Part shown: one piece after another, positions 19,805 to 64,000 of the stretch
Numbering within the stretch: the first letter of the stretch is position 1
How the letters are laid out: every line of letters starts with the position of its first letter
DNA from: Zygnema cylindricum
Taxonomy: Eukaryota; Streptophyta; Zygnematophyceae; Zygnematales; Zygnemataceae
DNA length: 64,000 bases
Reading direction: 5' to 3'
Assembly (NCBI GenBank): GCA_037447655.1
Contig: JBBHKE010002568.1
Coordinates: forward strand, 256,711 to 320,710
Notes under the pieces: generated by a model
The model's database searches: none
Seen by the model: the letters and a program-made list of their open reading frames with translations, nothing else
Told to the model about the DNA's origin: nothing
Program-made: the position numbers and the translations under genes

Positions 19805-19815
19805 GGTTATGGGCC
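19805..19815 (+). promoter_or_regulatory. Primer-binding site of E and gag start
   Basis: GGTTATGGGCC follows the LTR directly and matches the first 11 bases of the half-tRNA-type site seen in D and H. The ATG at 19809-19811 starts the gag frame (MGLLSRFPIFNG). Confidence 0.72.
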
Positions 19816-28615: not shown

Positions 28616-29740
28616 TGTTGAGATTTGAAATCTTTAGTTAGTAAATAGAGTAGACTTATAATAGCTTCTAAAAAGTGGTATATAAGACTTACCTTTATTA
28701 GTGTTACAGTAGGCAAAGTACAATAAAGTGTATTGTACCTCTGCAAGTTTTACGGAGTGACGACGACACGCGTCACGTAGCAGGCAATTGGAATCGCTAG
28801 ATTAGACGGACGGAATGAGATCCGAATATCTCGAAAAAATATATGGTACGGCTATTTTTGGAGTCATACAGATATTTTGGAATTATATGGTACGGAATAT
28901 TTTTATGATCATTAAATAGAAACGTCCGGATATTTCGGAAGTGAATTATGATCATTGACTTTGAGAGACGTCGACGGACGCGATTCACGTGGGACCGCAA
29001 GTGACGAGGCGAGATTTACGTGGGACCACAAAGTGACGAGGCGTGATTCACGTGGGACCACAAGTGATGGAGCACTCAGGTGCTTCGTACTACACGACCA
29101 CATTCGGCTGGACTTTAGCGGCTATCGCTGACTAAGCATTTTGAACGTTTTGTGTACGGTTAGAACGTTTTGTGTACGGTTGAATGTCTGTCAATATCTG
29201 AATAACATTAGTTTGTATTTTAGTGTGATTAAAAATAGTGTTCCATTAATCAGGTTTTTAGAAAACAATAATTAGGGTTTTGAGGTACATTCACGTACAG
29301 GTAGGATGCTTTGTCGTTAGTCAAGATAATAACCGGTAACGGTTACCCAAATTAGTGTAGATTAGTAGGTAGACACGGTGAGTGTATAACTTAGGACTTA
29401 GCCATTTTTGTAGTATCCAGTTTTGGGAATATGATTTTCTAAGGGCAGTTTTTGGAAAACTTCCAGACATTATATCTTATGGTTTACAAGGTCATTTGAG
29501 CTGCAATTTTGGGAATTGTCAGTTTAATGTATTTTGTATGATTGTGGCGAATTTGAAGCATATTGGCTTTCTGAGTCATATTTTTGTGTCAGTTCTAAGT
29601 TGGCTGTTGAGTAGGTACTTTGATAGTTTCTGTTGTTTTTCATGTCTAATTCCACTACTACTCTTAGTTCTCCGCCAACAACGATGGTTGTAGAACAACA
29701 AGATGTAGTTCCTTAATAATTGTCAAGTGTAGGAAATGTA
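28616..29740 (+). repeat. 3' LTR of element E
   Basis: 1125 bp; same termini as 18679-19804. Directly right of it (29741) the sequence continues as H LTR (GATATAAAACATGG against GATAAGAAACATGG at 47975), so H's LTR resumes at the end of E. Confidence 0.85.
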
Positions 29741-29757
29741 GATATAAAACATGGTTG

Positions 29758-30797: not shown

Positions 30798-33260
30798 CTC
30801 TAGGGTGCCCACCCTTATGGATTTGGTTTCATCTATTGGGAAGCCATGATGATGGGAGCCTTGTGCGAAAAACGATATTGGGGTATCGTCAGTGGACAAG
30901 TGAAACGTCCACCTTCGGGAATTCCTCCGGGTTTTGGAGGAGTAAGGTTTTCTGCAGCAAAGACTGCTTCTATGGAGGAGGCAGATGATGGGGACAACAA
31001 TATATCGGAGAAGGGGAAAGGGAAGGAGACACCACTCACCCCTATTGCCATGGCACCGGGATCGGCGGCCGTGAAGACCGTGGAGAACGATACTCAAATG
31101 TGGGAAGACGTAAACATGGCTGCAAAAAACGTCATTTTAAGACACCTCACCCAAGGTTTTGCAACCCCTCACCTTCACATTTACAAAGCCGAGGAGCTAT
31201 GGGAGAGTTTGGTGGAAATATATAGAGCTGGAACTGTTGTTTTTGAAAAGTGAGTTTCGTGCGAACACGGCATTTCGTGCGTACGCGATGTTTCGTGCGT
31301 GCGCGAGTTCGCGTGCGTACGCATTTACGTGATATACTGTGGAGGTTCGAAAGGATTTGCGGATTAGGGGAGTAAGTGTACGAGTGAAATTAAAGTGACG
31401 TGGGGAACAAATTGGGTGGTGCAAAATGCGGTTAGAAATGAAGGGCGGATCGCGAAGCGATCCGATATGAAATGCTTGAAATATTTAAATTGTACGTCGG
31501 CCGTACGGAACCTAAAGTTACGAGCGACAATAATGGAAAGTACGCGATGGTACATAGAATCTATTTTGGACAGGTGTACTATTAAGTGTACTTTATTTGC
31601 GACGCATTTATCGAAAATGACGTGTACCTTATATGCGACAAGACGCATTTATGACGAAGTACGCGGTTTCGGTACGGACAATATTTGGATGGTACCGTAT
31701 CGTTTTGACAGTGGATTGTGTTGTACTTTGAGGCGTCCGCCGATTTTTTTTTTAATGATTCACACTATTTTGAGGATGTATGATCAAGTGGCCGTACGTA
31801 TGTGATATCGGTTCACTACGTGGACTTATCGACAAGTGACTAAGCAAGTTGTCACTTACGACGCGGATTTGTGGATGCTCGGTGTAAATATTTGAAGAAA
31901 CATTTTCTTGTCGTATGTGTATTAATAAATTAGAGTTGATTATGATGTTTATATTTAAGTGATCAATTAGGGTTTCGATAGTTTAATTTGTGTGTGTAAG
32001 ATGTCGTACTTGTAGACAAGTGTACGCTTACGATTGCTTGACTCTCAGGTGTACGCTTACGATTAGTTTACTCTTACTAACACGTTATTATGCGTAAATA
32101 GGATTTAGTGACAGTTGCGTAATTTACGTTGGTTATTTTGACACTTAGTGATTCTTTGACAGCTCACAAGTGTATATATAGGAATGAGTTTTGTTAAGAA
32201 TAAATAATCAATGCTTGTTAGAAAAGTAGGGACCAAAGATGTAGTATTTTAGGGTTGTCGATTAGGTCATGCACTTTGAATGGTGTAATGATTATTTGAT
32301 TATACTTTTGTTTATGTGTGGTGCATTTGTTTGTTATTATTTATTTATGTTATTTTATATATGTTTGATATGCATTGTTTATGCATTTGTCCTAGGGTTT
32401 GTTTATGTCGATTATTCCATCAAACCTAGATGTTGTCATAGGGTTTATTTATGTTGATTATTCCATGAAACCCTAAATGTTGTTTGTTGCGTCTGTGTAC
32501 GCAAATGGAGGATGCATTTCAAATGATTGTTCATTGGCCTAGCTTTGCTTAGCTTCTTGCATGATAGTTTGGGTTGCTTCTGCGGTCTATTTTAGATCAA
32601 AGAACAACAAGAACTATTTAGGAGCTCTAGTTGGCTGAGCAAAAGCTAGCTAGTTACACTTACAAAGGTGGAAAGATGTTAGATTATTGTAACGATCTAT
32701 CTTGTTTGTATATAGAGATGGAAAGTGCCGGGGGACAATTACAATAAAAATGAAAGTTAACACTCTTATGATGAAGTTACCAGATGAGTTCGAGAAAATA
32801 GTGTACCGAGTACAAGGAATGCCTGATAGTTCATGGAAATGGAACATAGTGGTCAGAATGATACTTATGCAGGAAAACACAATGGAGATTAGGAGAGGAG
32901 GAAAGAGCATTCAAGTACTAGCTGCAGGAGGGGACCGATGGGGGAAGGACCCGAAGAAACCTTACAAAGGGGAAAGAGATTAGTCTGGGGCACCAAGGCC
33001 CCCAAGGGGTCTTTGTCATTTTTGCAAAAACCAGGACACTTCATTGCAGACTGTGTGGAGCTGTCGGAGCTGAGGCTCCAAGAAAAAAGTAGAGGGGGTT
33101 CTTCCGGAGGGAAGAAAAAGGCACTTGTGGTTACAAAAGTGACAGGAGAGACCAAGGATGAGTCCTCTGAGGAGGATCGGGAACTTCTTCTTCACGAGAG
33201 TCGGGAGGAGAAGGAGATCCCTCAAAGACAGAAGTGTGCCGTTGGAGCAATTCGAGAGGC
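30787..33260 (+). pseudogene. gag of element F, split by a solo LTR
   Basis: First part: MGPPSRVP at the primer site, a frameshift, then MMMGALCEKRYWGIV, an acidic and Gly-rich linker, NVILRHLTQGFATPHL and WESLVEIYRAGT. A solo LTR interrupts at 31235-32609. The gag resumes as LAEQKLASYTYKGGKMLDYC, MKLPDEFEKIVYRVQGMPD, and a zinc knuckle (CHFCKN ... GHFIADC) split by a one-base frameshift near 33025. The order equals that of B and D. Confidence 0.86.
31235..32609 (+). repeat. Solo LTR of the H family inside gag of F
   Basis: 1375 bp, TGTTGTTTTTGAAAAG to AAGAACAACA, with flanks GGAAC (31230-31234) and AGAAC (32610-32614): a 5-bp target duplication with one change. It shares with H the start TGTTTTTGAA, the palindrome GGATCGCGAAGCGATCC (31447-31463), AAGATGTAGT...GTTGTCGA near 32235, and the end TCTATTTTAGA..AAAG. 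The ORF at 31395-31805 is inside it and not a gene. Confidence 0.85.
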
Positions 33261-34677
33261 TCCACAGGAAGGATGGATCATCGACTCAGGTGAATCCATG
33301 CATACGTGTCGTGATAAAAAACTCTTCACTAAACTACGAAAGATCCCTACTGTAGAGATAAAGTATAGGGATGGAAGAGAGGTAACTACAAATCAAGTGG
33401 GATCAGTAGATCTAAAGGTCTTAGTGGATGGTAAGACTTCTTTTCTTACATTCTCAGATGTACTCTACATTCCTCAGCTGAGTAAAAATCTTGTCTCTAC
33501 ATCTGTGTTAGATGACAAAGAGTTTGATACCTTCACTAGAAAGGGAGTCTTTACAGCTAAGTATGGGGATGAAGTTTACTTCACCGCAGATAAGGGTAGC
33601 CAATGAATGTTTAGGCTTAACCTGAGTAATGAAAAGAAGAATGCTTACTATGTTGGTGTTCCTAAGTTGATGATTTGGCATAACCGGTTGGAGCATGTGC
33701 ATTTTGATACGTTGAGGGAAATAAAAAAGCTTGGAGTAGTAGAAGACATTTAGTTTGGGGATAATGAAATAATGGATGATTGTAGTGGTTGTGCTCAAGG
33801 TAAGGCTCACAGACTTCCCTTTCCCAAAGCCGCCACATATAGAGATGAGATAGTGTTAGATTTGGTTCACACATATATTTGGGGACCTGCAAAAGTACCT
33901 TCGGTTGGAGGAAAGAGGTTTATGATGACAATAACCGATGATTGGTCTAGATACTCTAGAGTCTACTTTCTGAAAAAATAAATTTGAAGCATCAACTTAT
34001 TTCAAAGAATATAAAGTCTGGTGTGAAAAGTTGTATGAAACCCCCATTAAGAGGATAAGGAGTGATAATAGCGGGGAATATACCTCTAATCAGTTTGAGG
34101 ACTATCTAAGAGATGAGGGAGTGCAACACCAGAAAACTATACCATATAACCTGGAGCAAAATGGTGTAGTTGAGAGGTTGAATTGAACACTAGGAGATAG
34201 TGCATGCAGTATGTTGGCAGACAAGAAAATAGGAAAGAGATTTTGGGTAGAGGCAATGAATTGTGCCAACTATGTTAAGAATAGAGTCCTTACCTCAGCT
34301 GTAAAGGGAGTGACACCTTATGACAAATGGGTTGGAAGGAAACCAGATATCTCACACCTTAAAGTGTTCGGTAGCCAAAGCTACAATCTTGACACAGATA
34401 AGAAAAATTGGAAACTAGATGCTAAGGGAAAACTTGGATACTTTGTGGGATATGATGAGGATGTTAAGGGATATAGAGTCTATGACTTAGCAAAGAAAGA
34501 TATCATTCTGGTCAAACACTTAGTTGTCATGGATGAAGGAAAGTCATTTGACCCCTTCAAATATACAAAGAAGATAAGAATCAGATTTGAGTCTGAAAGT
34601 GAGGAGAACGCGATCGTTCCCGAAAGGGACATAAGTGAAACCGTGATTGCAGATTCAAGGGAGATCCAAGATACATG
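33261..34677 (+). pseudogene. Protease and integrase of element F
   Basis: Protease site WIIDSGESMH (Ala of DSGA is Glu), then VGSVDLKVLVDGK. Integrase zinc domain IWHNRLEHVHFDTL ... CSGCAQGKAHRL. In the core the motif expected as HTDIWGP reads HTYIWGP (near 33870), so the first catalytic Asp is lost. RSDNSGEYTS (second Asp) and NGVVERLN (Glu) remain, with a stop straight after. The C-terminal part (YDKWVGRKPDISHLKVFGSQ, GYDEDVKGYRVYD) is open from 34211 to 34678. Confidence 0.88.
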
Positions 34678-34699
34678 AGACTCACCGAAAACCTCACAT

Positions 34700-40146: not shown

Positions 40147-41817
40147 TCACTTTACTGATGGCAAACTACATTCACTTCTTTGTCTGCTAAGAGATCTCTC
40201 ACAAGATTTAGAACTTTGACTTCCATTCTCACTTTTTATGCTTTCAGAATCTGATTGGGAAGATTCAAATCTCTTACCAATTTTAATAGATTTCTTCTTT
40301 TTCAATGGAATTTCTTCATCCTTCTCTTCGTCACTCTCGTCATTAATTTTGAACTCCTCCAAATTGTTCTCTTCCTCAAAATCTAAACTTTCTTCCTTAT
40401 CCTTTGTAAACTACATTGCTTTCGCCAAATTTCCGTGAGACTCCACATTCCTCGTTTGGACAACCGCTCGTGTACCAGGATTGAAAATCCTATATTGACT
40501 TAAATTTGGACTATACCCACCAAAGATACCCATCCATGATCTGAGACTAAATTTTCCGGCTCGATATCTTTTCTTGATGTAGACAGTGGCTAGACATCCC
40601 CAAATCCTCAAATGTCGAACAGATAAAATCGTGCCACTCCACAATTCTTCAGGCGTCTTATCTCCAAAAACCAAAGTTAGTCTTCTGTTACAAATGTAAT
40701 TTGCTATAAGAACAACTTCTCCCCAAAGCCTCACACTATGTTTAGTTGTATGTAACATAGCTCTAACTATCTCTTGAAGTGTCATATTCTTCCTCTTAGT
40801 AATGCCATTAAATTCAGGTGAGTACACAACAGTAAATTGCTGCTTAATCCCTCTTTTCTGACAAAAGCTTTTAAAAGCAACAAATTCTCCTCCATTATCT
40901 GATATAACTGCTTTTAAATTTCTATCCGTTTCTCTCTCGGCCATTACAACAAATTCTCGAAACTTATATAACGCTTCTGACTTATGTTTCAACAAATATA
41001 CCTAACTCTTTGGACTATAATCATCCACGATTACAAAGATATACTTATGTCCTCCTAGACTTAATGGTTTGACGTCTCCACATAAGTCTACATGAACAAG
41101 CTCAAGGGGAGCACTAGCTCTATACCTCACATCTTTGATAGGATGAGAATTTTTAATATGTTTTCTTTTGCTACAACCATTAAAACCTTGAACTTTCTCT
41201 CCGGAAACACACTCTAATCCTCTTACTGCTGCACTTTTCATCATATTCTTTATATTAGACTCAGAAGTATGACAAAGTCTATGATGCCATAAACTTAGAT
41301 CTCCTCTTTCAGAACTTACAGCATAGATTGAAATTACTGAACTCTGATCTTTTGTGGTCTAATCCATTTTAACTTTGTAAACAATCTGTTACATAAACTT
41401 CTTCAAATTGATTCAATTCTCTATCTTGGAAAACTATTCTTCCATTTTCAAATAAGGTTACTCCACCAATATTCTTTTGTATCTGAAGAACACTAACAAA
41501 GTTTACAACTCCATCAGGAAAATACAAAGTATTGAATTCACTTACCTTACTACAACTTGACCATTCACATTCTTGACAGGTAAATCTATTTTGACAGTTC
41601 CCACTGTAACTATCGGGATAACATGTCCACTAGCAACCGTAATAGTCTTAGGAACTGTAAGTTTTCTCTAATCCGTAAACAAACTAAGATCATTACAAAC
41701 ATGATGAGTTGCTCCAAAATCAACTATCTAATCTTTATGACTTTGACTCCCACATGCGGAATTTGCAGAATTAACAGCAAGATTTCCATCTTCTTTCATC
41801 ATCATAGAAAAAGTTAG
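40147..41817 (-). pseudogene. Protease and integrase of element G
   Basis: Protease site IVDFGATHHVCND (Ser of DSGA is Phe, about 41715), integrase zinc domain LWHHRLCHTSESN ... GCSKRKHIKNSH, core with HVDLCGDVKPLSLGGHKY (first Asp kept), AVISDNGGEFVAF (second Asp), and FNGITKRKNMTLQE where the catalytic Glu position reads Lys. The C-terminal domain (WGCLATVYIKKRYRAGKF, GGYSPNLSQYRIF) and an acidic linker (40147-40362) follow. Confidence 0.88.
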
Positions 41818-41976
41818 GGACTTATTGCCTTGATCGTCATAAAAATCTGAATAGTGGGTTTGATGTCCTCCTCTATGTGATTGTCCGAATCTTCCACGAC
41901 CTCGTCCTCGTTGTCCACTTCGACCTCTTCCTCTATTTGAGTAGTAAGATGATCCTCCTCCATTTTGTTGAAAACA

Positions 41977-43117
41977 CTAAGCACTAACATGTCCCCATTT
42001 CCAACAAATATTGCATTGCTTTTCCTTATCTGGATAGTTTGTAGCCACGTGTCCCTCTTTATTACACTTATAACAAGTAACATGACTTACATCACCTTGA
42101 TCGCTATAACCTCTTCCAAATCTTGAATACTGAAAGTTGTTTCTACCCCCTCTTGATCTAAACCTTCCTCTACCTCCACAACCACGTAGAGAATATACCT
42201 CATACGTATCAGTGAGGTTTACATTATTATTTCCAAATCCTCTACTCTCTTTCTCTTTACTCTTCTCTGCACTTTTAAGAAGGTTGATAACAAAATCAAA
42301 AGTAGGATCCTCTATGGATCTTATAACTTCAATTGTGACATCAAACATGGATGGTAATCCATTTAGAAAAACGAATAATTTTTCATCTTCAAGAGGAAAC
42401 TTTCCTGCGCTATTCAACTGCTCTATCAAAACATTAAATATTTTTAGAGCATCATCAATCGACTCGTTACTCTTCATCCTAAATTTAATAAAGTCTTCAA
42501 ATACATAATTTGACTTAGTTACAAATCCTTTCTCATACAAATTTTGAAGATGAGTCCAACAAGCATGAGCCGTATTATGAGTTAACATATGCTCATGAAC
42601 CAAACTACTACTACTCTGAAGTAATGCAGTCATAGTTGCCATATCTTTAGTATCCCACTTTTTCCTTCCTTTTTCATCTAATGGTCTTTACTCTTCTCGT
42701 GTAAGTATTTTCCACAATTTCTTTGGAGTAAAGGTTCCCTGAATATATCTCTTCCATAGAGGATAATTATTTCCATTGATAATTATTTCCATTTAACATA
42801 ATAGTCTTAGAAGACACTTTATAATCTGACTCTTCATCTGAACTTCACTCATCATCATCATCATAAAAAGGTAATTGCAATTTACCCTTTTTGACTTTCT
42901 TCTTGGAACTCTCATCATTTGAATTGCCACCAAAGGTTGGAGTTTTACCAAAAGATTGTCCTTCTCTTTTTGCCTTTAGAAATTTGTAAAGTTCCTCCAT
43001 AGTCGTTGGATCAAATTCAATTGTGAGACTCTCTTTCGCCATTGATAGCTTCTCCGATTCTCCAACTCCAAAAGTGACTTCAGTGCCTTCTCTCTTTGCG
43101 GAGTTTTTCTCCACCAT
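41977..43117 (-). pseudogene. gag of element G
   Basis: N-terminus from ATG at 43117 (MVEKNSAKREG), Lys-rich, ending in DDDDE near 42845. After a broken stretch (about 42645-42840), which includes a 16-bp tandem duplication with TAATTATTTCCAT, the core ORF 42642-41977 has LVHEHMLTHNTAHACWTHLQ, FIKFRMKSNESIDDALKIF and FPLEDEKLFVFLNGLPSMFD, a UBN2-type gag. Two zinc knuckles follow, CYKCNKEGHVATNY (last Cys is Tyr) and CNICWKWGHVSA. Confidence 0.9.
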
Positions 43118-43929: not shown

Positions 43930-44503
43930 AGTGAATGCTCTAAGTGAGCATTATAAGCGGCCATGTGTGGCTGATTGTTAACTGAAAGCTCTAAAGGGAG
44001 CATTATAAGCAGCCATTAAGGGAGCATTATAAGCCGCCATGTGTGGCTGAGTGTTAAGTGAATGCTCTTAGCGAGCATTATAAGCAGCCATGTGTGGGTG
44101 AGGGTTAAATGAATGCTCTAAGCGAGCATTATAAGCAGCCATGTGTGGCTGAGTGTTAAGTGAATGTTCTAAGTGAGCATTATAAGCAGCCATGTGTGTC
44201 TAGTGTCAAGTGAATGCTCTAAGTGAGCATTATAAGCAGCCATGTGTGGCTGAGTGTTAAGTGAATGCTCTAAGTGAGCATTATAAGCAGCCATGTGTGG
44301 CTGAGTGTTAAGTGAATGCTCTAAGTGAGCATTATAAGCAGCCATGTGTGGCTGAGTGTTAAGTGAATGCTCTAAGTGAGCATTATGTGTGGCTGGGTGT
44401 TAAGTGAATGCTCTAAAGTGAGCATTCTTTGCAGCCATGTGTGGCTGTGTGTTAAGTGTGTGCTCTAAGTGAGCCTTGTTTGTAGTCATAAGTGGTTGTT
44501 AGG
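43930..44503 (+). repeat. 51-bp minisatellite in the leader of H
   Basis: About eleven tandem units; the regular ones are 51 bp. Each holds two inverted repeats, TGCTCTAAGTGAGCA and AGCCATGTGTGGCT, which can fold as hairpins. Outer units are irregular. Stops occur in the array, so it is not coding. Confidence 0.92.
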
Positions 44504-49518: not shown

Positions 49519-50716
49519 GAGAGGGGTAAAGAGGAACATGGAGAGAGAGAGAGAGGAAGGTGATTGAGATTGGGGTATTTAGAGAAACAAAAAGAGAGAG
49601 GGGGGCGATCGAGAAACTAAGAGAGAGAGAGGAGAGGATTGAGAGACTGGGATAGAGAGACAAGGAGAGAAAGAGGGGGGGGGGATCGAGAGAGGGGGAT
49701 ACAAAGACTGGGAGAATGACATAGGGTGGTGATAAAAAGTGGGGGATAGAGAGACAAGGAGAAAGAGAGAGAGGGGTGGATTGAGAGATGGGGATAGAGA
49801 GATACGGAGAAAGATAGAGGGATAAAGTGAGAGGAGTGGACCGAGGGAGGAGGATACACAGACAGGGAGAGAAAGAGAGAGGGCAAGATCGAGAGAGGGG
49901 GATAGAGAGACATAGAGAATGAAATAAAGGGAAGATCGACAAAGGGGATAGAGAGATAGGGAGAGAGAGAGAGGGGTGGATTGAGAGAGGGGGATAGAGG
50001 GATACGGAGAGAGAGAGAGGGGGGAATTGGGAGAAGGGGATTATGGAGAGAGGGGGTTAGAGAGACAAGGGGAGAGAGAAGTTGGGGTTCAAGAGAGTAG
50101 GACAGAGAGAAAGGGAGAGGGAGAGGGAGGGGAGATCAAGAGAGGGGGATAGAGAGACAAAGAGAGAGAGAGGGGGATATGGTGATGAGAGAAGAGATAG
50201 AGATAGGTGAAATAGGGGAAAGAGAGGGGATAGGAGAATGAGAGAGGAGAAGGAGAGAGATAGGGAGAGAGAGAGGGGGATTGAGAGAGGTGGATAGAGA
50301 GATAAGGAGAGAGAGAGAGGGTTGGATGGAAAGAGGGTGATAGAGAGACAAGGAGAGAAAGAGATAGGGTGTGATCGAGAGACTAAGATAGATAGATAGA
50401 GTGAGGGAGAGAGGAGGATCAAGAGAGGGGGATAGGGAGTCAAAGAGAGAGAGGGGGGTGATTGTGAGTGGGGAATAGAGAGAGGGGGATCGAGAGACAA
50501 GGAGTGAGAGAGAGAAGGGGATTTAGAGGGGGGGATCTAGAGAGGCGTATAGAGGAGCAGATAGAGAGAGAGAGAGAGGAAGGCGATTGAGATTAGGGTA
50601 TAGGGAGACACAAAAAAAGAGAGGGGGGAGATCGAGAGAGAGAGAGGAGAGAATTGAGAGACGAGGATAGAGAGATAAGGAGAGAAAGAGGGAGGGGTTG
50701 AGAGAGGGGGATAGAG
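49519..50716. repeat. GA-rich minisatellite array 2, right part
   Basis: Same unit type as array 1, 1.2 kb. ORFs on the minus strand are composition artefacts. Confidence 0.92.
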
Positions 50717-51392: not shown

Positions 51393-52072
51393 TCAATCTG
51401 GTGATGGCTGCTAAATTTTTCCTTTCGCAAAGTGTCCTAGCCTGATAATCCAAAATCGACATCTTCTCCACTCCGTTGATCGCTTTCCAAAAGCGGCGAA
51501 GTACCAATTGTACTTTTATGTACTTCTTCCACAATCGGTAATTCGTTCCGTTGGAGAGCATAATCTTTTCGGGCATCTGTTAGACCTACTCCTCATCTTT
51601 ACTCTAATCTTCAAGGTCGTAATCATCAACGGGAAATTTTCCCTTCCGAATCTGCTCCTTTCTTCCCTCTTCCTCGTCTACTTCTCCATCTCGATTGTAA
51701 TCCCTTGGATCTAGATTCGGATCTCTAAAGAAGAGAAAATTTTCCTTGCGGTTATTCTTCAAAATATGTTGATCCACATAGCCACAAGGACCATCGATTA
51801 GCTTTAGAAGACGGTCTTCCGCCATGTCATTCTCCTCCTTTTCCTTCCTTTTTTTGACCAAACGGGCCGGGTGGAAGTGTTTCCTCAACCATCGACGAGT
51901 AAAGCCAACAACACTAAGCTCTGAGTCCAATAAAGAATCTAAACAATAAGTCGGAGCCGGATCGAATGGCGGAGTAAACATAGGAGAGAGGTAGTTTACA
52001 CAGATTTCTTCTTCTTCCCCTCCATGGCGGCAATACTCGCTATTCTTGTACAACTCAACAGAGCACACAAGG
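51393..52072 (-). pseudogene. Truncated copia-type gag
   Basis: Minus-strand reading: an N-terminal acidic and basic extension (MAEDRLLKLIDGPCGYVD ... RDYNRDGEVDEEEG), stops near 51570-51600, then MPEKIMLSNGTNYRLWKKYI, the FDG.NY..W-type gag start with VLRRFWKAINGVE. At 51392 it passes directly into GA-rich repeat (51340-51392), where homology ends. With the primer site just upstream, this is the 5' end of a copia-type element whose remainder is missing. Confidence in the family is moderate because only the gag N-terminus remains. Confidence 0.65.
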
Positions 52073-52085
52073 CTCCGATACCACT
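52073..52085 (-). promoter_or_regulatory. Primer-binding site of the 52-kb fragment
   Basis: On the minus strand AGTGGTATCGGAGCC follows a sequence ending GATCCATCA (LTR end). It is the common copia site complementary to the tRNA-iMet 3' end. Confidence 0.78.
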
Positions 52086-55000
52086 TGATGGATCAAAAAC
52101 AAACAATAGCAAATGAAAAGCACACGTAAGCAGTGAGAAAAACACACACAAATAAAAACATTACACTGAAGACAATATATTCCACGGAGAATTTTTTTAA
52201 CTTCAACTCTCTCTCCTTCTCTATAAAACACTACAAACGCTAACTTGCCAACCGTACATTCAACACTAAAAAGCGGACCTATCACAAAGTGCCTACAAAG
52301 CCAAACATAAAGTACTAAACGTACTATGCGGAACGACACACATTGACCGAAATGTCACAAGAACATGTTTTGAAATGTCACCTCAAACGAAAACCAAACT
52401 AAGTAATGACTCTTGAAAGTGCTTAATCGCCCGTCTCCTAATGCCAAAATTGTAACCCGATAGAGGAGCTTTCATATAATATTTTAAAGGCAAAAACCTA
52501 AAATCAAAAGTAGAAACGATGTACACTTTGGGTCAAACAAGCCAAAAGTACCTTCCAGTTAAGTCTTCTCAAAAACCTCTTTGGAGGAAGTAACTCATTT
52601 TCATCTCTTGGTCATTTTTGAATTGTACTTTCCATTGCTCGATATGTGTGAATGTGATCAACACTCTCGCGGACTAGCATTTGGTTTTACATCAAGTAGG
52701 GAGTTGCAGAGAGCAAATCAGTTGTATGACGTGTAGAGTCATATATATATATATATATGTGAGCTATGGACGCTGGCGAGGATTTGTCGAAATTTGAACG
52801 ACATTCGGGATTACACTTTAAGTAGATTGAGGACGTTATCCAAGTGTGTTATTTGGGTTTGGCATTCAAGGATTCCAGTTTAAAGACTTGGTATCTCTGG
52901 GTATCGTTTCAAGTTTATTTTCTTTTGTAACCAGGCCCTGCTAAAATTTATTTTGGTTCATTATAACAGTACGGCTAAATATAGGTAGGAAACAACTTAT
53001 TTGGAACATGGACACAGATAATACTAGAAGGTCGTTCTCAAACTATTAGATCATGCCTGGAAAATATGTTTTCAGATCGTTGAGTATGCTAAGAGAACAA
53101 AAAATAGTAGAGAAAGTTGTGTTTGCATGGAAAGATCAGAACTTTCAAGAAGAGGAAGAGTTAGAAAGAAGAGGAGGGTAGTGGATGCAAAGCAATTACT
53201 AGTGTTGTTCCAAAAAACGTAAGTGCTATATTGAAAGTAGCTGATGTATCTAGAAATTTAATTTGTCTTTATAGCGTAAATATCCTTTTTTGATCGATGG
53301 AATCTAACAACTTTTAAAATATAAGAAGTACGAAACTATTTTGTGTTTCTTTTTAGAAATACTTGGGGCAGGATAAATTAAAAAGCACGATGGTAAACCA
53401 TCTGAGTCCGGGGGTACAAAGAGGGTGGCATGGCCAAAACAGAAAAACTACAATAAAAAGCAAAGAGAGCGACGAAATAGACAATGAAGCGTATCGTAGT
53501 TGGATATTTTGAAACGCGCGTTTGTTATTTTTTTATATAGAATTATATAATGTATGTCATTCAAACTTCAAATATTGACATACCATAAAACTTTGGTATA
53601 GTGCATTCGGTTCAAAACTCAGTGTTTTTACAATTTTACAAAACTACCTTTTATTACTGAAACACAGTCTATATACATATGGTTCTTTAATATTTTTGGG
53701 CAGTCCACAACAAATTGCCATTAGAGTAAAGAAATATATAGCGAGAGGAACTACTATTAGGGTAAAGAAATATATAGAGAGAGGAATATTCTAGCGCTTT
53801 TTTCACACATGTTTTAACAGCCTGTATTTATAAGTGACTGTAACAATTAGTTAAGTCCACACCCATCTGATCTGTTAACATGTGTAGTGTGACATTTATT
53901 TTGTCAGCGCCACACCATATATGGTTGTACAACTAAAATTATGAAATGGATTCCACGAGACTGCTGAATTTATGTTTGAATTGCTAACTTAAAGTAGGAT
54001 TTCTTTCCTTGAAGAATCTGATCACTATGCATTGTACTAATTCACTGGTAATCGCCACTGATTTAACTGAATAACTTCACTGAAAATCACTTTTTTTCGT
54101 TTCTTATCTATTGATCTCCTCAAGTTGCATGTCTCAAATTGATAAACAAGCAAATACCACAAATATCTTACATACTTTTAAATCTTAAGTTGCTTTTGTG
54201 ATTAGAATCAAGGATTCTTATTAAGATAGTTTTCCCTGTGAGTTTGGTGTAATTGCAGGCTCAGGACTGAAACCAATCCAGAGAGGAAACTAGGAGTTGG
54301 CGAAAACCTAAACAAACTCAAAAGAACAGATAAAAAATCACTGAGAAAACATCGAGGATGTTGGGGCCCAAACTAATATATTTTGGGCCCAAATGAGGCT
54401 GCAAATGTTAGTTGTTTTAACTCACAGATAGAGCCAATGTAAGGTTTCAAATAGTGTGATTATGTGGTGTATTTTTTTATAGACAACATAATCATCACTT
54501 CAGTATCAGCATCAAAGACTCACCAGGTTATTGTTGTTGATACTATTGCTACTATTTATGGAAATGCCACAATTTCTAACTCACTGGAAGAGTTTTTTTA
54601 TTATGTTCATTGCAAACAAAGACAAGGACAAGCCTCATTACATAATGAATGGCGCTGCATAAATTACAACTGTCACATTTGTACTAATGAATTGCATTTG
54701 ATTTAATTAAACTGATCCTAGAAAATTTCCTACAGAGAGAATTACATGGTAAAAACAAAACATATTTTCCAAAGTATGAAACCACAGCTAATCCACATTT
54801 TTCAACAAAACAGAGATAAAAACGCACACGAAAAGATAAACACAGTAACACCAATTTCTCAACAAGCAGGAATGCTTGCTAAATTTTCAGACTTATAAGG
54901 CAACTTGAACCATTTTAGTATGTTCCATTCTGTATATCTTTGACCAATCCATGCATCCCACTCTTGACTCCCCTCTCCCTATCTCTTCTGCTCTTTATCT

Positions 55001-55377
55001 AAACAGATTAGCGTTTATGTTCTCATTCATGTTTCAATTGCTACATATAGTAGATCACTTGAAGTAAATAATGTTTTACCGTTTATTATAACAGATTGCA
55101 CCAAACTGACGCAACTTACAATCCACACCATAGGATACATGAAGGAAAACATAATATATATTCGCCCAGATGTAGGTCATTTTCAATGTGATGTTGTATC
55201 AAGCCTGCCTATAGGAATCATGTGGAATTCTAACAGCACCATAAGGATATATTTTTTTAGCTACCCAACACTATAGATGTCAATTCTGTAGACATTAGCA
55301 GTTTGACTGTCTTTTTTAATTTCAAAAATCTCACGTGATTCAGAGCAAAGGTAGTAACGCTCCTAAACTTTCTGCAC
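52086..55377. other. LTR remnant and intergenic sequence
   Basis: 52086 to about 52360 is probably the 5' LTR of the preceding fragment (minus strand; a possible start TGTGACATTTCGG near 52358). From there to 55377 I recognise no gene. An (AT)n run lies at 52741-52758. Confidence 0.5.
53722..53792. repeat. Tandem duplication, about 36 bp x 2
   Basis: Two copies of ATTAGRGTAAAGAAATATAT followed by AGMGAGAGGAA. Confidence 0.85.
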
Positions 55378-57651
55378 TCACTTACATTTGCTAGCTTTGC
55401 TAACGCAGATGGTGGGATTACTTTTTTTCAGTAGAGATCCCAAAAACCTGTTTGTACATGACATCTTATTTAAGGATTTAAATGTGTCGGGTTTTTTGAA
55501 GCATTTTTTCAGTGACGAGCAGCTGGTCGTTTGTGTCAACTTGATAGCCTTCTGTTTGCAGCCCTTCAATATTTTTCCTAAATCTCCTTCTTCGAGGCAA
55601 ACCTGACCACAAACACAAAATAAACGAAACCGTTTTCCATAAACGACATACAAATGCGTTGTTGTGCAGACAGTTTTGGAATTGAAGGAGGAAAGAAATC
55701 AGATTCATGTCACTGCACGGAGGCACAATAGTTTCTAGTAGTATGAGCAAAAATATTTTTATTGACTACGTACCTCGTCATTGTAACCTGCCACAGTGGT
55801 GATATAACTGTCGATGCGAGAACAAAAAATTCCCACGTTGAGGGTGTAAAACTTTATGACATTCTCGAGCTTTTTGGCATCGGTTTTCTCAACATCGGGA
55901 TCCATAAGATTTGCAATAATTGAACTGCATGTGTCTTCTGGTTTGACTTGATAGAATTTCACACATGGTAAGGGGTACGGAAGATCCCCTCGAATGATGC
56001 ACACCTGACAAAAAAAACAGTCCACCTTATGAGAAAAGTAACTTTGATTTACGTCGTTTTCAACATTGAATGCATTCGGCTCCTGGGCATTCTTCGTCTA
56101 ACATTCAGCATAATCTTTTCCAAACCTGGTGAAAGGGCTGAAGCTCGCTGCAGTCAAGGTCTGGATTTGGTGAATCTATTCCGGAAAGTGCTGTTAGATT
56201 AAACATTTGTTGGATAGAGTCACAACTGTCATCCTGTAAAACAGACAAAATTATTCACTATTAATCGTAACTGCTGCGGGAAGGACTAGGAAACTGATGA
56301 AGAAAGAAGAATGTCCATAACATTTTCGATGTCTACAACATAAATACTATTTGACACATACAATAAGCAGCATCAGTCATTCTTAAACAAGGAATAAAAT
56401 CCGGCAATGGTCATATACAAGCTTAAACTATTTTACGTAGTTTATCACAGATCCTACGCCCATATAATGGGGCAACTAACCTCAGTCACAGTGTATGGAA
56501 GAGAGCAGTTGCGATATGCAGTCACGTTCACAATCGTCCCTGATAACAGTGGAACGTCGCAATCAAGTTTCTGTCAATCAAAGAAAGCTACTATCAGTTC
56601 AGAAAAACTTAACACTTAAGGAAAGGATTGCTTTTTTGGTGTTTATTTAGAGATTTGCAGTATGTTGCAATGCATTCTTTAGCACTAAATAGCCAGGGTC
56701 TTTCACGCGTATAGGGGCGTGTTTGACCCTCTGCCGGACCATTGTTTAGCCTATGCATCGCTACTCATTTGTTTTAAGTGAAAGATGAACAATATTTTGT
56801 TTCAAATAATTATTTGAGGAATGATAAAAATTTTGGTTGCTTATATCAGTTCAAGCCCTTTACGAAACAAGAACTTGATTTGGCTTTATATTTCTCAATT
56901 TGCAGTCATGGGAAGGTTTGACATCTACAAAAAAATCATCTAACCAAAGTTGTCTAATGTTTATCATACTTTAACATGGAAAAAATGCCCCTTAATCATT
57001 TTATGTAAGAACAACATTAGAGTTTCGACATGGTTAACAGTTAAAATTTTATTGTCTAGCTTGGAAATCGTTTTTTTTGCCTTTTGAAAAATCAGTTGAT
57101 CTTTTTTCCATGTCTAGCAATTATAATAGAAGTAAGTATGACAAATCTCGTAGCCAATATCCAATTTTACAAATTTTCTGGATATTTGCCTTTTTTTTTC
57201 GTTGTTTTGGTACACTAACGATTGTTTTCGTTATAGCGCCTGAATATCGAGAGTGTTTGAATCCAATGATGTTTAATGGTGGACAGACTCTAAAATGTTA
57301 CTAACAAGCTATTGCACATGTCTCGGGTATCTACTTAGGTCTCCAAGCAGGGCAGACATGAGGTAAAATATGCTATTGGAAGGGTACTAAATTGTCCTAT
57401 GGTCATGCGGGTGAGCTGGTGTAAATGGAGTTACTAGAATGAAAGGAAAATCCTTGATAAACGAATTCAGAAGAGGTTTGTGAAGTGAACAACTAGGAGT
57501 GCACATCATGAAACGTTCGAAAGTCGTCATACCAGATTCTGCTTTGTAAAGTCATCTTGGGAAATTCCGTATGCATTACGAATGGCATTACAAGTCACAT
57601 TTCCACTCTCTGGCACAGTGTAGAAATTTTGGCGGTCCCCGAGGATGACAG
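55378..57651 (-). other. Four LysM-like repeats
   Basis: Five exons: 57533-57651, 56481-56570, 56126-56233, 55774-56004, 55378-55602. Repeat 1: FYTVPESGNVTCNAIRNAYG with LDCDVPLLSG. Repeat 2: YTVTEDDSCDSIQQMFNL ... LDCSELQPFHQVC. Repeat 3: FYQVKPEDTCSSIIANLM. Repeat 4, most diverged: KLTQTTSCSSLKKCFKK ... PTICVS. The pattern Y.V...D.C..I, then C..L..G..VC, is that of Cys-containing LysM modules that bind N-acetylglucosamine polymers. The last exon ends SKCK and stop at 55378-55380. Confidence 0.78.
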
Positions 57652-60600
57652 CTGCAAGATTTGTTGGCGAATATTAGGGCATCCATCAAATAAACACATG
57701 GAGTACAACTATTTAAAGCAGTTAAAAATAGTTCCAATGCCAAAAAGTACTGTTTAGTTATTCAGAAATCAGAGAACCAATGGCTTTGATTATTTCATCG
57801 TCTGTGGAAATAAGTCTGTAATTTTAGGTTTGCAGCTTTATTACTGACCGGGCACACAAGTAAGCAGGCCGTCCGTGTCACTAGAAGAATATCCTATAGG
57901 GCAAACGCAAAGATAAGTGCCCGGATAACGCACAGAATTGATGCAAATACCCACGCCACAGCGATTTTTGGAGGCGAAGGTACACGGATTTGCTGCAACG
58001 CCACATCCACAATTAAGTACCCCCGGTTAGATAAAGTGCGTGAGGGATTCTTCTAAGATCTGTTTGCAAAACAGAACTACTTCAAACATTGTTATCCCAA
58101 CCATTATTATGTCATCCACACCAGGAATACCATATGTTTCTATGCAAATTAAGTTTTTGAGGTACTATGTCTGCGACCTTTCACGACTATTCAATTTCAT
58201 TGAAACATGAACGTTACTCATTGTTCATTGGCCCGCAAAAAACTAAGAATGTCAGCTCAGTACACATGCTTACGTGTTTAGGGTTTCCGGTTAACCATAA
58301 TCAGGTGGACCCAAAATCTTGGCGTAAGCCAAGTGCTTTCATGAATCTACTGAGCGCTGGCAACAGTTTAACTCTATTAGGCCTGGTCCATAGAACGATT
58401 TATATGCAGCTACAAAATGTTGACCACGGATTAGAAAAGCGCTAAAGATACTTTTACAGCATGTAAAGCTTTAAAATGAATTGAATTGAAGTCTTAAAAC
58501 TAGACATTACTGGTCCCATTTACTTCACATGCTTTGTATGACACGTTGTGTATAGGATTCAACGGTATGCTCGTCAGTTTCCTTATCCTGCATAATATAT
58601 TGGACACAAATATGTTACCACCAAGTACATCTATCCTTTAGGAATGGTGACAGATTTCCAAAACCTTAGGAATGGTGACCTAACCAGAGATTTCCAAAAC
58701 CAAGTATTCAAGGACAAACATAGTTTTTAAGTTACAAAGTGAGTTCCACACGTATATGCCTTCTAGATTAAAGTAATCTTCTTGGGATTATATAACCTTT
58801 AGCACATTTCGGCTCAACTTTATCCACTCTACTGGTTATGCAGTGGGTTTTATAGATCAGTGTGCTAAACCTTCCTTGGATTATGTTTATTTTAACATAT
58901 ATCAGTTAAACTTCATGTTATATCTTCTAATAACCAGTGGTCCAGTCTGTAATTAGATTTGATCCATTCCCTAAAAGTGCAATGTAGTTTATGGATCAGT
59001 GGAATTCTGCATTTCGGAAGGACCTGGAGCACAAGTCTGGCTGCCATCCGTGTTGGTGACGGCAACAAAGTTATCGCTGCATCTGCATAAGTTGGTAGAG
59101 CCTGACGGAATACAAACTCCGTTGCCGCATGGATTCATGCGGCCCGGGCCGTATCTAGCATTCAGCTTATTCTTGACAAAGTTGTTGTGGTTGCAGGGGT
59201 CCACTGCAAGGACAAAATAAATGGCATGGAAGCATGAGACTTTTATTCTGCGGTAGATTAGTAAAGGTGATTTGATTCTGAAACAACCCCTTTTGGTGTA
59301 CTCATGAAGACTTTTTTTACCGGACACAAGCTACAAAAGTATTTTTTCAGCAAGATTTTCTACTCATATTAGATAAATACAGATGATGCCTTTGAAAAGA
59401 ACAACAACAGTTTTAGGTCGGACTTAGTTATTGGAGATCGACATACATTAAATGGAAAAATCAATAAAATCTTGTCCTAACACCACTTGTTTCTGGTCAC
59501 GTCATTAAAGGATGACAAACAGCGAGCGATGTTACATGCCAGATGTTTGCTACTGTAACAGTAATGTTCATAAATCAGTTTTGGATCGATGTCAACAAAC
59601 GATATTCAACATTAGTCCACAGTAATTTCTGTCCATCCATTTCAGTCAATGTCCTCCAAATGTCAATGTCCAATATTTCCATGTCCATGCTGGTGAATTT
59701 CCGTGTCATTATCAGTTAATCACTGGAAATGAGTTCCCTCCATCACAAGGTTACAGTCAATATTCCTTTACAATCTTTTATTGTTTGAAATCCACTTTTT
59801 CTAGACTCCAACACAAGAATAAGCATCGAACATATGTATTCATGAAACAAAGGCATACATTTCCCAATTACAAATATGTTTCATATGGAACTTCATGCAT
59901 AATATGCGACAAGATACCCATAATCTCTGTGAAAATACTAAGTTTACACAGACAAAAAATAGTTTTAGAAAAATAACACAATTATAAACAAATAAATAAG
60001 CGAATACATTGTCAAAATACTATGTCATTGACCTTGCAGATGACCTTTCTTACATGGTAACTTCACAATTGGTACAAGCACGGGCAAGGTATTTATCCCA
60101 CATATTCCGGGCCCTCCAGCAATTTTTAGGCGCATATATCCTTTGTCGCCCCAAGTCGGACCCCAAGAGTTCCGAATGAGCCAATAGGGCGGATTGTAGG
60201 TCAAATCGTAGCCAACAACAACGACCGCGTGATCCACTCCATCGGAAAAGCAGTCTTCGTCAGAAAACACCCCCTGCAGAACCGAAAGGACACAAACAAC
60301 ACAATATTAGGTTTCGGCTCTATTACTATTGTCGACGGGTTCGGCTCCATGAGGCAACCAGTTGTGACATAAATCACAATAGATTCGTATACTTATAGAT
60401 GTGATATCTGCGTATCTATTAGAAGTTAAGGTAAGAAAATATTTTTATTGTTTTCTCTCTTAATTGGTGACATTGGTCTGCACTTCGTAACTTACCATGC
60501 ACTCACAAAAAATCACTTTGTCTTCTGGAACACCTAAAACGCCTCCTAAATTTTGTAAATTTGGAACCTTCAGAATTAACAATTGAGTTTTTTTTTGGGG

Positions 60601-63600
60601 TGTATTCGAACACACCCATACGTGCAGAGATCAAGGCATTCACAGTGGCGGAAAATACAAAGGTGCAGGTTTGTTGAAATTCACCATTTTGGGATCATAG
60701 TTGAGAAAAGTGCTACCACTTGCTTCTATGCCGACAACCGCTGTTTGTTGTTGGAGAGCTAAAAGCAGCCCCAGCCATCCATCTAGCTGGACTCTCTCAA
60801 AAGATTGGATCATTAAGTTTCCATCGATCTGGACATACACCCATATTTTTGTTGCTATTTACTAAAATGTAACCATAAATCACAAGGATGTGATATACCA
60901 AATGAAATATCTGTTCTTTTTTGAAAATGCATGTTGAAGAGGCAAACATGGGTATGCTCAATTTTACAAATATCGAACAGTTCCACAAAACGAAAAAGGA
61001 AATGTCCCTGTTTTTTTTGTATTGCTTTCCTTGTTGAAACAAATCTGTGGGACAAAAAAAATACCTGCCCTCCTGGACAATTGCCTGGAATATATTTTGA
61101 GGTCAACATGAGAGGATTATTAGATGCATAATCAAAAGCCTCTATTGGCCAACCACCGGCAGAGCAATCACGAGCCAAACTCGAGCAGTTAAAGATCTGG
61201 TTTTCTGATATGGTGGGAACGTCTAAAGCTCCCCCATTTGCGATGTAATAAGCACTCTCAATTGTTGAAATTGATGCGAAGAGCCAGCAAATATCTGAAA
61301 ATACCATTAATAATACGAAAATAAACATGTCAGCATATGATGTTAAGTGTGGAATTCAACATCTATTCTAATTCAACCAAACAACTAGGTGTGCATTTCA
61401 ATACTTCAAAGAATGTATGATAGAAATGAATCATGTCACGGAAGATAATCATCCACGAGTTGAAAGTCTGACATGTCATAACGCAAAGAATAAAACATTG
61501 ATGGTGAAACATATCAATGCTTACTTCTGAAATTAGGATGGCTGCTAGTTTCCTCCGGATAAAACATACATTATTTCTTTGCCTACAAATTAGACCCGAC
61601 TGCCCTTTTTATTCATAAATGCAGCCAGCTACAAGCAGAAAATTTGTCTAAATTTTGTCATTCACGATGACCACATGCCTCAATAATCTCAAATACCCGT
61701 TTCTTACTGAATTGTTCTTTTACATACTGCAATTTTGCTGGTCCTTGATGGCTGTTACCGCTCCTCGTTTCACCCAATTCCAGTTTGTTGCTACGAGCCA
61801 AGATGCCTTACTGTCGTCATCCGGAATTAAGTATCCCGAGCTTGCATAGCGAAAATACCTGTTCAGCTTCGTGTAATTGAATCTACTGAGAGTTGCAAGT
61901 CCCAGACCACGTCCCTCTGCAGGTGTTGGAGGAAGTTCTTGTCAGACGGTGGGATCACAGGAACATTAAAATACAATGTGATGCCGTATCTCTTATAATA
62001 TGAAGGAGATTACATAAACCTTCTCACTTCTCTCCTGAAATGACCTTGAGCCAGATAACTGGCATTCTCCCCTACAATTTGTTCTTAATCTCTCCATCTA
62101 TCAGCCTATACACAAGAGTTGGAAGTATATGTGATGGCTGGAATTGCAAGCGGCCACTTTGTAACATCAGAAAGCATAAACGTATCTTCTTTTTTTAAGT
62201 TGGTGATGTGGTGCAGATCTATTGTTTGTTTCACGTATGTTTCAAGGGTCTTGTTGTTAAAAAGAGGCAAATGCTTAATAAAATGTACAATTTCAGTATT
62301 TCATGTAACCCTTGCTTAATGAAGGTGAAAGCTTATCGTTATTAGTGGTCATAATACTACACCGCCCACCGCTATCAATGCTAGCGCATTCTAAACGTGA
62401 ACACTTTGTTGGAATTTACTACACGAATTTTTGTTTTGTGACGGCTAATACGGGGCACTTAAATAATATGTTATTAACACCATTTATGATTTTGTGTCAC
62501 GAAAAACACAAAAAACACTCACTTGAATTAGAGTGATTTACTCTAATAGCGATGGTAGTTTAGTTCAATTGTGACTTCTTTGGCCAAAAATCATAAAATA
62601 ATGCTCGTAACAATATGCGAGGGGAATGGACAACAACTGGTCACGTTATTTTTCACTATGTAAAAATTATTGAAATAGTTTACCGATAATACCAATGTTT
62701 CCTTTACAGCACGATGGGCAATGCATTGGTAAGAGGCATGTTATGAAGTGCTACTTACCAAAGCTACAAATGGAATTATCCACACTTGTTGAATATCCTT
62801 CATCACATATACATGGAACATCCAAAGCCGTACAGTAACCATGTCCTCCGCATACACCCATGGGTTGTGTCGCATTGCAAAATCTTTCGCATTCCGATAT
62901 AGGCCTTCTGCTTGATGTTGAGTTTTTACATGAGATGTCGTCAAAGCAATTGTTCTTAACAAAGGCACAAGCTGGATTGCCATTCACAGAAACACTCGTT
63001 CCAGATAAATAGTTGTAGCTGACATCAATCTTGACGTCGGCCAGACTTTGAAGGTCAATGGTGAAATTCCCAGTGAGAAAATTGTTTCGCAAATTCCTGT
63101 AGCCAAAACAAGGATTGTTGTACTCTTGGTGGCACATGTCACACGTATACAGCCTTGAAGGTCAGGAGAAATATCTAAGTTCAAAGGGTTGTAACTAATG
63201 GAAGTTGTGGAGTTTGGATCATTGTGTTTAAGAAAGAGCGGAGAAAAATCTCTAAAGCTTTCGATTAGATTCTGATGCATTAAGGCACTTGTAACTTACG
63301 CACGCCTGAGAAAGTTGGAGGAGACGAAGACTGGAACATAAGGGAGCTTTGCTAGAGATCTTTAGTGAGTTATGGCTTGAATTTCGTTAGCACGTGTACT
63401 AACAAAAATTTCTTGTGACGCTTGTGCCAAAAGCTTTCGAAAATATTTACAGCTGGAAAACTACTGATATGTATTATTAAATTATAATCGCTCTCTACCA
63501 AAAAAAACACAAAACAATAAACAAACGAATTAAAAAATCACAACTCACACGTCCTCGAGTCTTTTCAGGCTGCCAAAACTTGTAGGTATGGTGCCCACCA

Positions 63601-64000
63601 AATTGTTAAAGGATAAATCTCTGAAATAACAGAGGAACATCGAGTGCAAGCAAGTGTAAGAGTAGACAATTAAAGGTGAATTTCTGTAAAATTTGACTTC
63701 TGTAATTTTTCGTGATTTAACTACAGAAACGCTAGAAAGTTGCATTGTTTCTTCATGCTCATTAACCTTTTGTAGCTTCACTTATCTCTTCAGTTTAATT
63801 AAAACAGCAAAATGAACTTACATAATTCTCAACCTGTTTAGGCTGCCTATATTTGGAGGTAGGGTCCCACTGAAGTTGTTATCGTCTAAATACCTGAAAC
63901 ATCCATTTGTAAGAGTTCTTTCAAAACTTGTCAGTCATTTTTGACAGCATTACAGTCAAGGGTATTTATGTAGCAAAAAAAATTATAAGCAACACTTACA
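55378..64000 (-). CDS. LRR-EGF-papain protease-EGF-LysM protein, 3' part
   Basis: Fourteen exons are proposed on the minus strand: 63822-63893, 63549-63620, 62759-63096, 61728-61916, 61065-61294, 60685-60828, 60054-60273, 59024-59203, 57849-57992, 57533-57651, 56481-56570, 56126-56233, 55774-56004, 55378-55602. Introns follow GT-AG and every junction keeps the frame; total 2362 nt, 786 codons plus stop. A GTAAGTG donor begins at 63999, so an exon ends at 64000 and the 5' end lies outside. Domains in order: LRRs, EGF-like, C1A peptidase, two EGF-like, four LysM-like. LRR and EGF modules with N-glycosylation sites suggest an extracellular or vacuolar protein; no membrane segment is seen in this part. 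Function inferred: a chitin- or peptidoglycan-type glycan-binding protease. Main risk: two adjacent genes, joined by me across the 842-bp intron 61917-62758. Confidence 0.75.
57849..57992 (-). other. EGF-like module 3
   Basis: ANPCTFASKNRCGVGICINS ... YLCVCPIGYSSSDTDG, TCVP. Acceptor GTTGCAG, donor GTCAGT. Same phases and same final TC(A/V)P codons as module 2, so the two exons look like a duplication. Confidence 0.82.
59024..59203 (-). other. EGF-like module 2
   Basis: LDPCNHNNFV ... NPCGNGVCIPSGSTNLCRC ... QTCAP. Acceptor CTTGCAG (59204) is strong; the donor GTCCTT (59023) is weak, but its position matches that of the next exon and the phase fits. Confidence 0.78.
60054..61916 (-). other. 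C1A (papain-family) peptidase domain
   Basis: Four exons (61728-61916, 61065-61294, 60685-60828, 60054-60273). In order: a short RFNYTKLNRYFRYASSG segment resembling only the C-terminal end of an I29 propeptide; TNWNWVKRGAVTAIKDQQNC; the active site QQNCNICW with the oxyanion Gln six residues before the Cys; CSAGGWPIEAFDYA; VGIEASGSTFLNYDPK; GVFSDEDC; the active-site His in VDHAVVVVGY; the Asn in RNSWGPTWGDKGYMRL. Length about 220 residues, normal for the family. The catalytic Cys motif is formed across the 61295-61727 intron, and FLNYDPKM|GVF across 60274-60684. Confidence 0.9.
62759..63096 (-). other. Last LRR and first EGF-like module
   Basis: Acceptor GGCTACAG at 63097. Starts NLRNNFLTGNFTIDLQSL (third LRR), DVSYNYLSG, a Cys-capping region (NPACAFVKNNC), then an EGF-like module: CERFCNATQPMGVCGGHGYC and CICDEGYS. 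It ends phase 1 at donor GTAAGTAG (62758). Confidence 0.85.
63549..63893 (-). other. LRR exons
   Basis: Two 72-bp exons, each one 24-residue plant-type LRR: YLDDNNFSGTLPPNIGSLNR and DLSFNNLVGTIPTSFGSLKR. Both have splice phase 2 at either end, the one-repeat-per-exon pattern of plant LRR receptors. The intron between 63097 and 63548 has another open stretch (about 63155-63266, SISYNPLNLDISPD) but no junctions that keep the frame. Confidence 0.88.

What the first reader, a model, noticed from the sequence alone, without database searches (positions are those of the whole stretch)
55378..64000. One gene appears to combine LRR, EGF, papain-type protease and LysM modules
Fourteen proposed minus-strand exons join in frame across 13 internal junctions, giving 2362 nt with a single stop at the end. 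I know plant proteins with LRR receptors, LysM receptors, or papain proteases with a granulin tail, but not this combination. It suggests a secreted protease that is targeted by glycan-binding LysM modules and held by LRRs, perhaps acting in defence or at the cell wall.
Basis: partly seen in the sequence, partly recalled or inferred. Interest (0 to 1): 0.9.

Follow-up and report, generated by a model that had tools for sequence, protein, structure and literature searches.

The report
Plant protease fused to sugar-binding domains
This stretch of plant-like DNA looks like one gene for a papain-like protein-cutting enzyme, probably secreted, that also carries leucine-rich repeats, EGF-like modules and sugar-binding LysM modules: an extended version of a protease-LysM combination already reported outside the vascular plants.

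Summary
Fourteen minus-strand exons, joined at 13 GT-AG junctions, give 2362 nt and 786 codons with one stop, at the end. Pfam finds Peptidase_C1 (2.7e-38), LysM (1.6e-9) and LRR_1 (2.3e-5); one EGF module passes its cut-off alone. The protease keeps the catalytic residues by alignment; no I29 prodomain was found. The gene is cut by the window end, so start codon and signal peptide are unseen. One gene is the better reading, not proven: the protease exons have no in-frame Met before the catalytic Cys, and the 842-nt intron before them offers no convincing start exon. But exons 4-7 form a 783-nt cassette with phase-1 introns on both sides, so frame alone fits other joins too. C1A-LysM combinations are in print and said not to be retained in vascular plants (PMC6362431, section 12 part 1); LRR and EGF added to them were not seen in my ten paper searches. 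Homologues and transcripts could not be checked (genome tool unreachable seven times). Best reading: a secreted, glycan-anchored cysteine protease; a new variant of a known kind.

The parts
63822..63893 (-). E1: LRR, 72 nt, phase-2 introns; 5' part of the gene lies beyond 64000
63549..63620 (-). E2: LRR, 72 nt, phase 2-2
   Evidence: LRR_1 24.1 bits, cut-off 20.6
62759..63096 (-). E3: last LRR, cysteine-rich cap and EGF-like module 1 (10 Cys)
   Evidence: (EGF_Teneurin 17.7 bits and EGF_2 16.1 bits, both below cut-off)
61728..61916 (-). E4: linker of about 40 aa without I29 match, start of Peptidase_C1 with oxyanion Gln; E4 could also start 21 nt upstream at an AAG acceptor in the same frame (seen in the sequence)
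61065..61294 (-). E5: Peptidase_C1 with catalytic Cys
60685..60828 (-). E6: Peptidase_C1, middle
60054..60273 (-). E7: Peptidase_C1 with catalytic His and Asn; E4-E7 is a 783-nt cassette with phase-1 introns on both sides
59024..59203 (-). E8: EGF-like module 2, six Cys, phase 1-1; unspliced it reads to a stop at 58989
   Evidence: no Pfam hit alone
57849..57992 (-). E9: EGF-like module 3, six Cys, phase 1-1
   Evidence: (EGF 22.8 bits, cut-off 21.5)
57533..57651 (-). E10: LysM1, first part
   Evidence: LysM1 slice 21.4 bits, cut-off 20.9
56481..56570 (-). E11: LysM1 end and start of LysM2
56126..56233 (-). E12: LysM2 core, similar to the LysM of solved Chitinase A chains 5bum and 4pxv
   Evidence: (15.6 bits, below cut-off)
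55774..56004 (-). E13: LysM2 end and LysM3
   Evidence: 14.3 bits, below cut-off
55378..55602 (-). E14: LysM3 end, cysteine-rich tail (possible degenerate LysM4), stop TGA overlapping a donor-like GTAAGT
   Evidence: (no hit)

Best explanation
One gene, 5' end off the window, for a secreted multidomain C1A (papain-like) cysteine protease. Shown: exons, frames, domains, conserved catalytic residues. Inferred: the protein enters the secretory pathway, its LysM modules hold it on GlcNAc-containing glycan (fungal chitin, bacterial peptidoglycan or cell-wall glycan), and the protease cuts proteins there; the LRR ectodomain adds a protein contact that could guide the substrate or keep the enzyme quiet, in place of the I29 prodomain that was not found. 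The exon phases suggest assembly by exon shuffling, with the protease as a phase-1-1 cassette beside phase-1-1 EGF exons.
For: 13 of 13 junctions canonical and in frame with one stop; used frame open in 14 of 14 exons, exon GC 0.447 against intron GC 0.355. Peptidase_C1 2.7e-38, LysM 1.6e-9, LRR_1 2.3e-5. One C1 alignment crosses the E4/E5, E5/E6 and E6/E7 junctions with no gap at a junction (small gaps lie near two of them), and Gln, Cys, His and Asn of the active site (roles recalled) are present. The E4 frame carries no Met up to the catalytic Cys and is open only about 25 nt upstream; of five ATG frames of 15 or more codons in intron 3, two have a GT in the right phase, with poor donors and hydropathy peaks of 1.6 and -0.14 (no signal-peptide program was run). 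The donor of E3 ranks in the top 1.8% of 510 GTs by recalled plant weights. Six cysteines in each of EGF2 and EGF3 and seven in the protease fit disulfide pairs plus one catalytic Cys. LysM2 resembles chitinase LysM chains, E 0.0012.
Against: No transcript and no orthologue was seen. The acceptors of E4 (top 26.8%) and E10 (top 27.7%) are weak. E3 joined straight to E8 would also be in frame, because E4-E7 is a multiple of three with phase 1 on both sides, so frame does not prove the E3-E4 link. E3, E7 and E8 each meet a stop soon if unspliced (62751, 60025, 58989), so shorter products are possible. The start-exon scan looked only at single exons wholly inside an intron. In intron 7, 6 of 11 ATG starts have a GT in the right phase, and one (59856) has a hydrophobic start (3.05), so a separate EGF-LysM gene is not excluded; E8 also holds a Met of its own. 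N-glycosylation sequons are not enriched: 10, shuffle mean 9.2, 896 of 2000 shuffles as high. Codon-position GC is flat.
Confidence: 0.68

Rival explanations
1. Two adjacent genes: an LRR-EGF protein ending near 62751, and downstream a secreted C1A-EGF-LysM protease with its own start exon in the 842-nt gap.
For: E3 unspliced meets a stop five bases past the exon. C1A-LysM proteins are in print, with no LRR mentioned in the part read (PMC6362431). The E4 acceptor is weak.
Against: No Met in the E4 frame before the catalytic Cys; none of the five ATG frames scanned in intron 3 gives a hydrophobic start followed by a good donor in the right phase; the E3 donor is strong.
Confidence: 0.2
2. One gene with alternative products (compatible with the best explanation): full-length protein, a protease-skipping LRR-EGF-LysM form (E3 to E8, in frame), or a protease without LysM ending at 58989.
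For: E4-E7 is 783 nt, phase 1 on both sides; E8 read-through reaches a stop at 58989 and an AATAAA lies at 58891.
Against: AATAAA or ATTAAA is common in this AT-rich DNA (19 in the 11 kb scanned); no transcript data.
Confidence: 0.25
3. A decaying or non-expressed chimera produced in retrotransposon-rich surroundings.
For: Five of nine other reading frames tested in the window match retrotransposon families, and the window holds many repeats.
Against: 786 open codons, catalytic residues and cysteine patterns kept, higher GC in exons than introns.
Confidence: 0.07

Closest known systems
C1A peptidase-LysM proteins of Archaeplastida (PMC6362431, section 12 part 1)
   Same: papain-type peptidase and LysM in one protein
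   Different: LRR and EGF parts of those proteins are not mentioned in the part read; the supplementary table was not available
Plant C1A papain-like proteases such as protease omega (1ppo) and caricain (1meg)
   Same: mature domain aligns to chain positions 4-206 of 216 with active-site residues kept, E 5.3e-35 and 1.8e-34
   Different: no I29 prodomain found; extra LRR, EGF and LysM modules
RD21-type papain-like proteases with a granulin tail (recalled)
   Same: C1A protease with C-terminal cysteine-rich module
   Different: the tail is EGF plus LysM by the domain hits, not granulin
LysM chitinases, Chitinase A chains 5bum and 4pxv
   Same: LysM of a glycan-acting hydrolase; LysM2 similar at E 0.0012 and 0.0018
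   Different: the enzyme here is a protease, not a glycosidase
LRR receptor proteins such as GSO1 (6s6q)
   Same: 24-residue LRRs, best solved match by E-value; 72-nt exons with phase-2 introns, which I recall as usual for such plant genes
   Different: no transmembrane segment or kinase in the part seen; most hydrophobic 19-mer averages 1.58

Membership tests
Peptidase family C1A (papain) | Peptidase_C1 domain over its whole length | tested here: met
   132.7 bits, cut-off 20.7, profile 2-216 of 220
Peptidase family C1A (papain) | oxyanion Gln, catalytic Cys, His and Asn (roles recalled) | tested here: met
   alignment to 1ppo and 1meg
Peptidase family C1A (papain) | proteolytic activity | not testable with these tools
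   needs an assay
C1A subgroup with I29 prodomain (cathepsin L-like) | I29 inhibitory prodomain before the mature domain | tested here: not met
   no I29 hit up to E 10 in the whole model or the linker slice; the part beyond 64000 was not seen
LysM proteins | LysM domain above the curated cut-off | tested here: met
   38 bits for the whole model; LysM1 alone 21.4 against 20.9
LysM proteins | binding to GlcNAc glycans | not testable with these tools
   only sequence similarity to chitinase LysM
Plant LRR ectodomain proteins | LRRs above the curated cut-off | tested here: met
   LRR_1 24.1 bits, cut-off 20.6; LRR_8 23.1, below its 27
Plant LRR ectodomain proteins | N-terminal cap and signal peptide | not testable with these tools
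   beyond the end of the window
LRR receptor kinase or receptor-like protein | transmembrane segment, with or without kinase | tested here: inconclusive
   none in the 786 residues by Pfam and hydropathy; a further 3' exon is not excluded
EGF-containing proteins | EGF domain above cut-off | tested here: met
   EGF3 22.8 against 21.5 as a slice; EGF1 below cut-off, EGF2 no hit; none passes in the whole-model scan
C1A-LysM proteins in print (PMC6362431) | orthology to those sequences | not tested
   protein database switched off; supplementary table not available

The most novel reading that the evidence does not exclude
The LRR ectodomain has taken over the role of the lost I29 prodomain: a self-contained sensor-protease in which glycan binding by LysM places the enzyme on a microbial wall and ligand binding by the LRR releases its activity, making receptor and executor one secreted protein.
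Probability: 0.15. Interest if true: 0.85.

Novelty: new variant of a known kind. Interest (0 to 1): 0.5.

Why it matters
From what I recall, flowering plants keep recognition (LRR and LysM receptors) and apoplastic papain-like proteases on separate proteins; PMC6362431 says that C1A-lectin combinations were not retained in vascular plants. A single protein that joins them with LRRs would show a different wiring of extracellular defence or wall turnover, and the symmetrical phase-1 EGF and protease exons would be a case of exon shuffling in a plant.

Tried and rejected
Relatives: the protein search was not sent because the database is off. With the 626 residues from E4 on, viral contigs gave no pattern match and genome contigs 20 pattern matches with 0 confirmed relatives; both reach close relatives only and hold no plants by design. 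The window's own genome could not be searched (all unanswered). tblastn of the model against the window, up to E 1, found the exons themselves plus two weak internal repeat matches, E 0.32 and 0.47, so no second copy was seen.

Considered and rejected: sequons as support for secretion (not enriched); NCBIfam hits to XopAC and XopAE, which I read as plain LRR similarity, 21.3 and 19.8 bits against cut-offs of 450 and 600. Rfam at gathering threshold and ARAGORN found nothing in the window.

Papers: ten searches, eight of them with LysM among the terms (not 28 and 47). Listed: 20 of 100, 20 of 22, 20 of 226, 2 of 2, 4 of 4, 15 of 26, 0 of 0, 7 of 7, 12 of 32, 12 of 17. Seen: titles and abstract starts of those listed; part 1 of 2 of section 12 and passages of PMC6362431; passages of PMC5485960, PMC10380794, PMC10834447, PMC12512272 and PMC12890914. 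None of what I saw describes LRR, EGF, C1A and LysM in one protein; the rest of the matching papers, supplementary files and most subscription journals were not seen. One search, meant to document 72-nt phase-2 LRR exons, gave nothing I used.

Full report
Observation. After correcting exon ends, 14 minus-strand exons between 63893 and 55378 total 2362 nt and translate, from the second base, to 786 residues and a stop. All 13 junctions are GT-AG and in frame. In 14 of 14 exons the used frame has no internal stop, while each of the other two frames has at least one. Exon GC is 0.447 and intron GC 0.355, but GC is flat across the three codon positions. By recalled plant weights, 12 of 13 donors fall in the top 13.1% of 510 GTs in the stretch and the thirteenth in the top 13.9%; 10 of 13 acceptors fall in the top 7.3% of 451 AGs, the others at 12.4% (E9), 26.8% (E4) and 27.7% (E10). 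The gene is cut at its 5' end by the window.

Domains. Pfam on the whole model: Peptidase_C1 132.7 bits, residues 203-412; LysM 38 bits, three stretches at the lenient E of 10 used; LRR_1 24.1 bits; no EGF family reaches its cut-off. Of eight slices tested alone, LysM1 and EGF3 pass their cut-offs; LysM2, LysM3 and EGF1 have sub-threshold hits; EGF2 and the tail have none, and the linker has only one chance-level hit. EGF2 and EGF3 hold six cysteines each, the protease seven, the cap with EGF1 ten. The mature protease aligns to protease omega and caricain (chain positions 4-206 of 216), with the oxyanion Gln and catalytic Cys, His and Asn kept (roles recalled). No I29 prodomain was detected; about 40 residues separate EGF1 from the mature domain. 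LysM2 resembles the LysM of Chitinase A chains (E 0.0012). The first exons look like those of plant LRR receptors: 72 nt, phase 2 (usual size recalled), best solved match GSO1.

One gene or two. For one gene: the E4 frame has no Met before the catalytic Cys and is open only about 25 nt upstream; intron 3 holds five ATG frames of 15 or more codons, two with a GT in the right phase, both poor donors without a hydrophobic signal-like start; the E3 donor is strong. Against: the E4 acceptor is weak, E3 unspliced ends five bases on, and since E4-E7 is 783 nt with phase 1 on both sides, E3 to E8 would also be in frame. For the E7-E8 link, the open frame upstream of E8 has no Met, though E8 itself has one; in intron 7, 6 of 11 ATG starts have a GT in the right phase and the most hydrophobic (59856) scores 3.05, so this link is less well protected than E3-E4. 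Start exons split over several exons, or outside these introns, were not scanned. I put one gene at about 0.75, and the full mechanism statement at 0.68.

Mechanism. Shown: domain order and intact active site. Inferred: secretion (the start is off the window, and sequons are not enriched), glycan anchoring by LysM, and a guiding or restraining role for the LRR part. The phase pattern (EGF exons 8 and 9 each 1-1, protease cassette 1-1) points to assembly by exon shuffling.

What is known. [quoted passage not shown] So the protease-LysM core is not new. LRR and EGF on top of it were not met in what I saw of ten searches, but homologue databases were unavailable, so its rarity is untested. The listing limits are given in Tried and rejected.

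Surroundings. Five of nine reading frames tested outside the gene match retrotransposon families, one of them gag of copia type, and GA-rich repeats recur. The species was not identified.

Noticed in passing
17150-19805 and 27088-29741: Two direct copies of about 2.65 kb, 98.5% identical. Their frames look to me like Copia reverse transcriptase/RNase H, but the two frames tested gave no Pfam match up to 0.001.
   Followed up: partly
32893-34678 (+), 40411-42687 (-), 2591-3094 (-): Retrotransposon pieces by Pfam: Pol_BBD, SH3_retrovirus (three frames), sub-threshold rve, copia-type gag.
   Followed up: partly
44017-44474: Tandem array, 51-bp unit, 9.2 copies.
   Followed up: no
8111-9681, 16095-16513, 49580-50570: Long GA-rich arrays around GGGGGATAGAGAGACAA at three places in the window.
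   Followed up: no
13582-13693 and 13769-13856: Arrays of a 19-bp unit containing CCCTAA, reminiscent of the plant telomere repeat (recalled).
   Followed up: no
51604-52092 (-): Open frame of 162 codons with a charged C-terminal part and no Pfam match.
   Followed up: partly
55370-55390 (-): The stop codon of E14 lies inside a donor-like GTAAGTGAG, top 2.5% of GTs; a further 3' exon or an alternative end is possible.
   Followed up: partly
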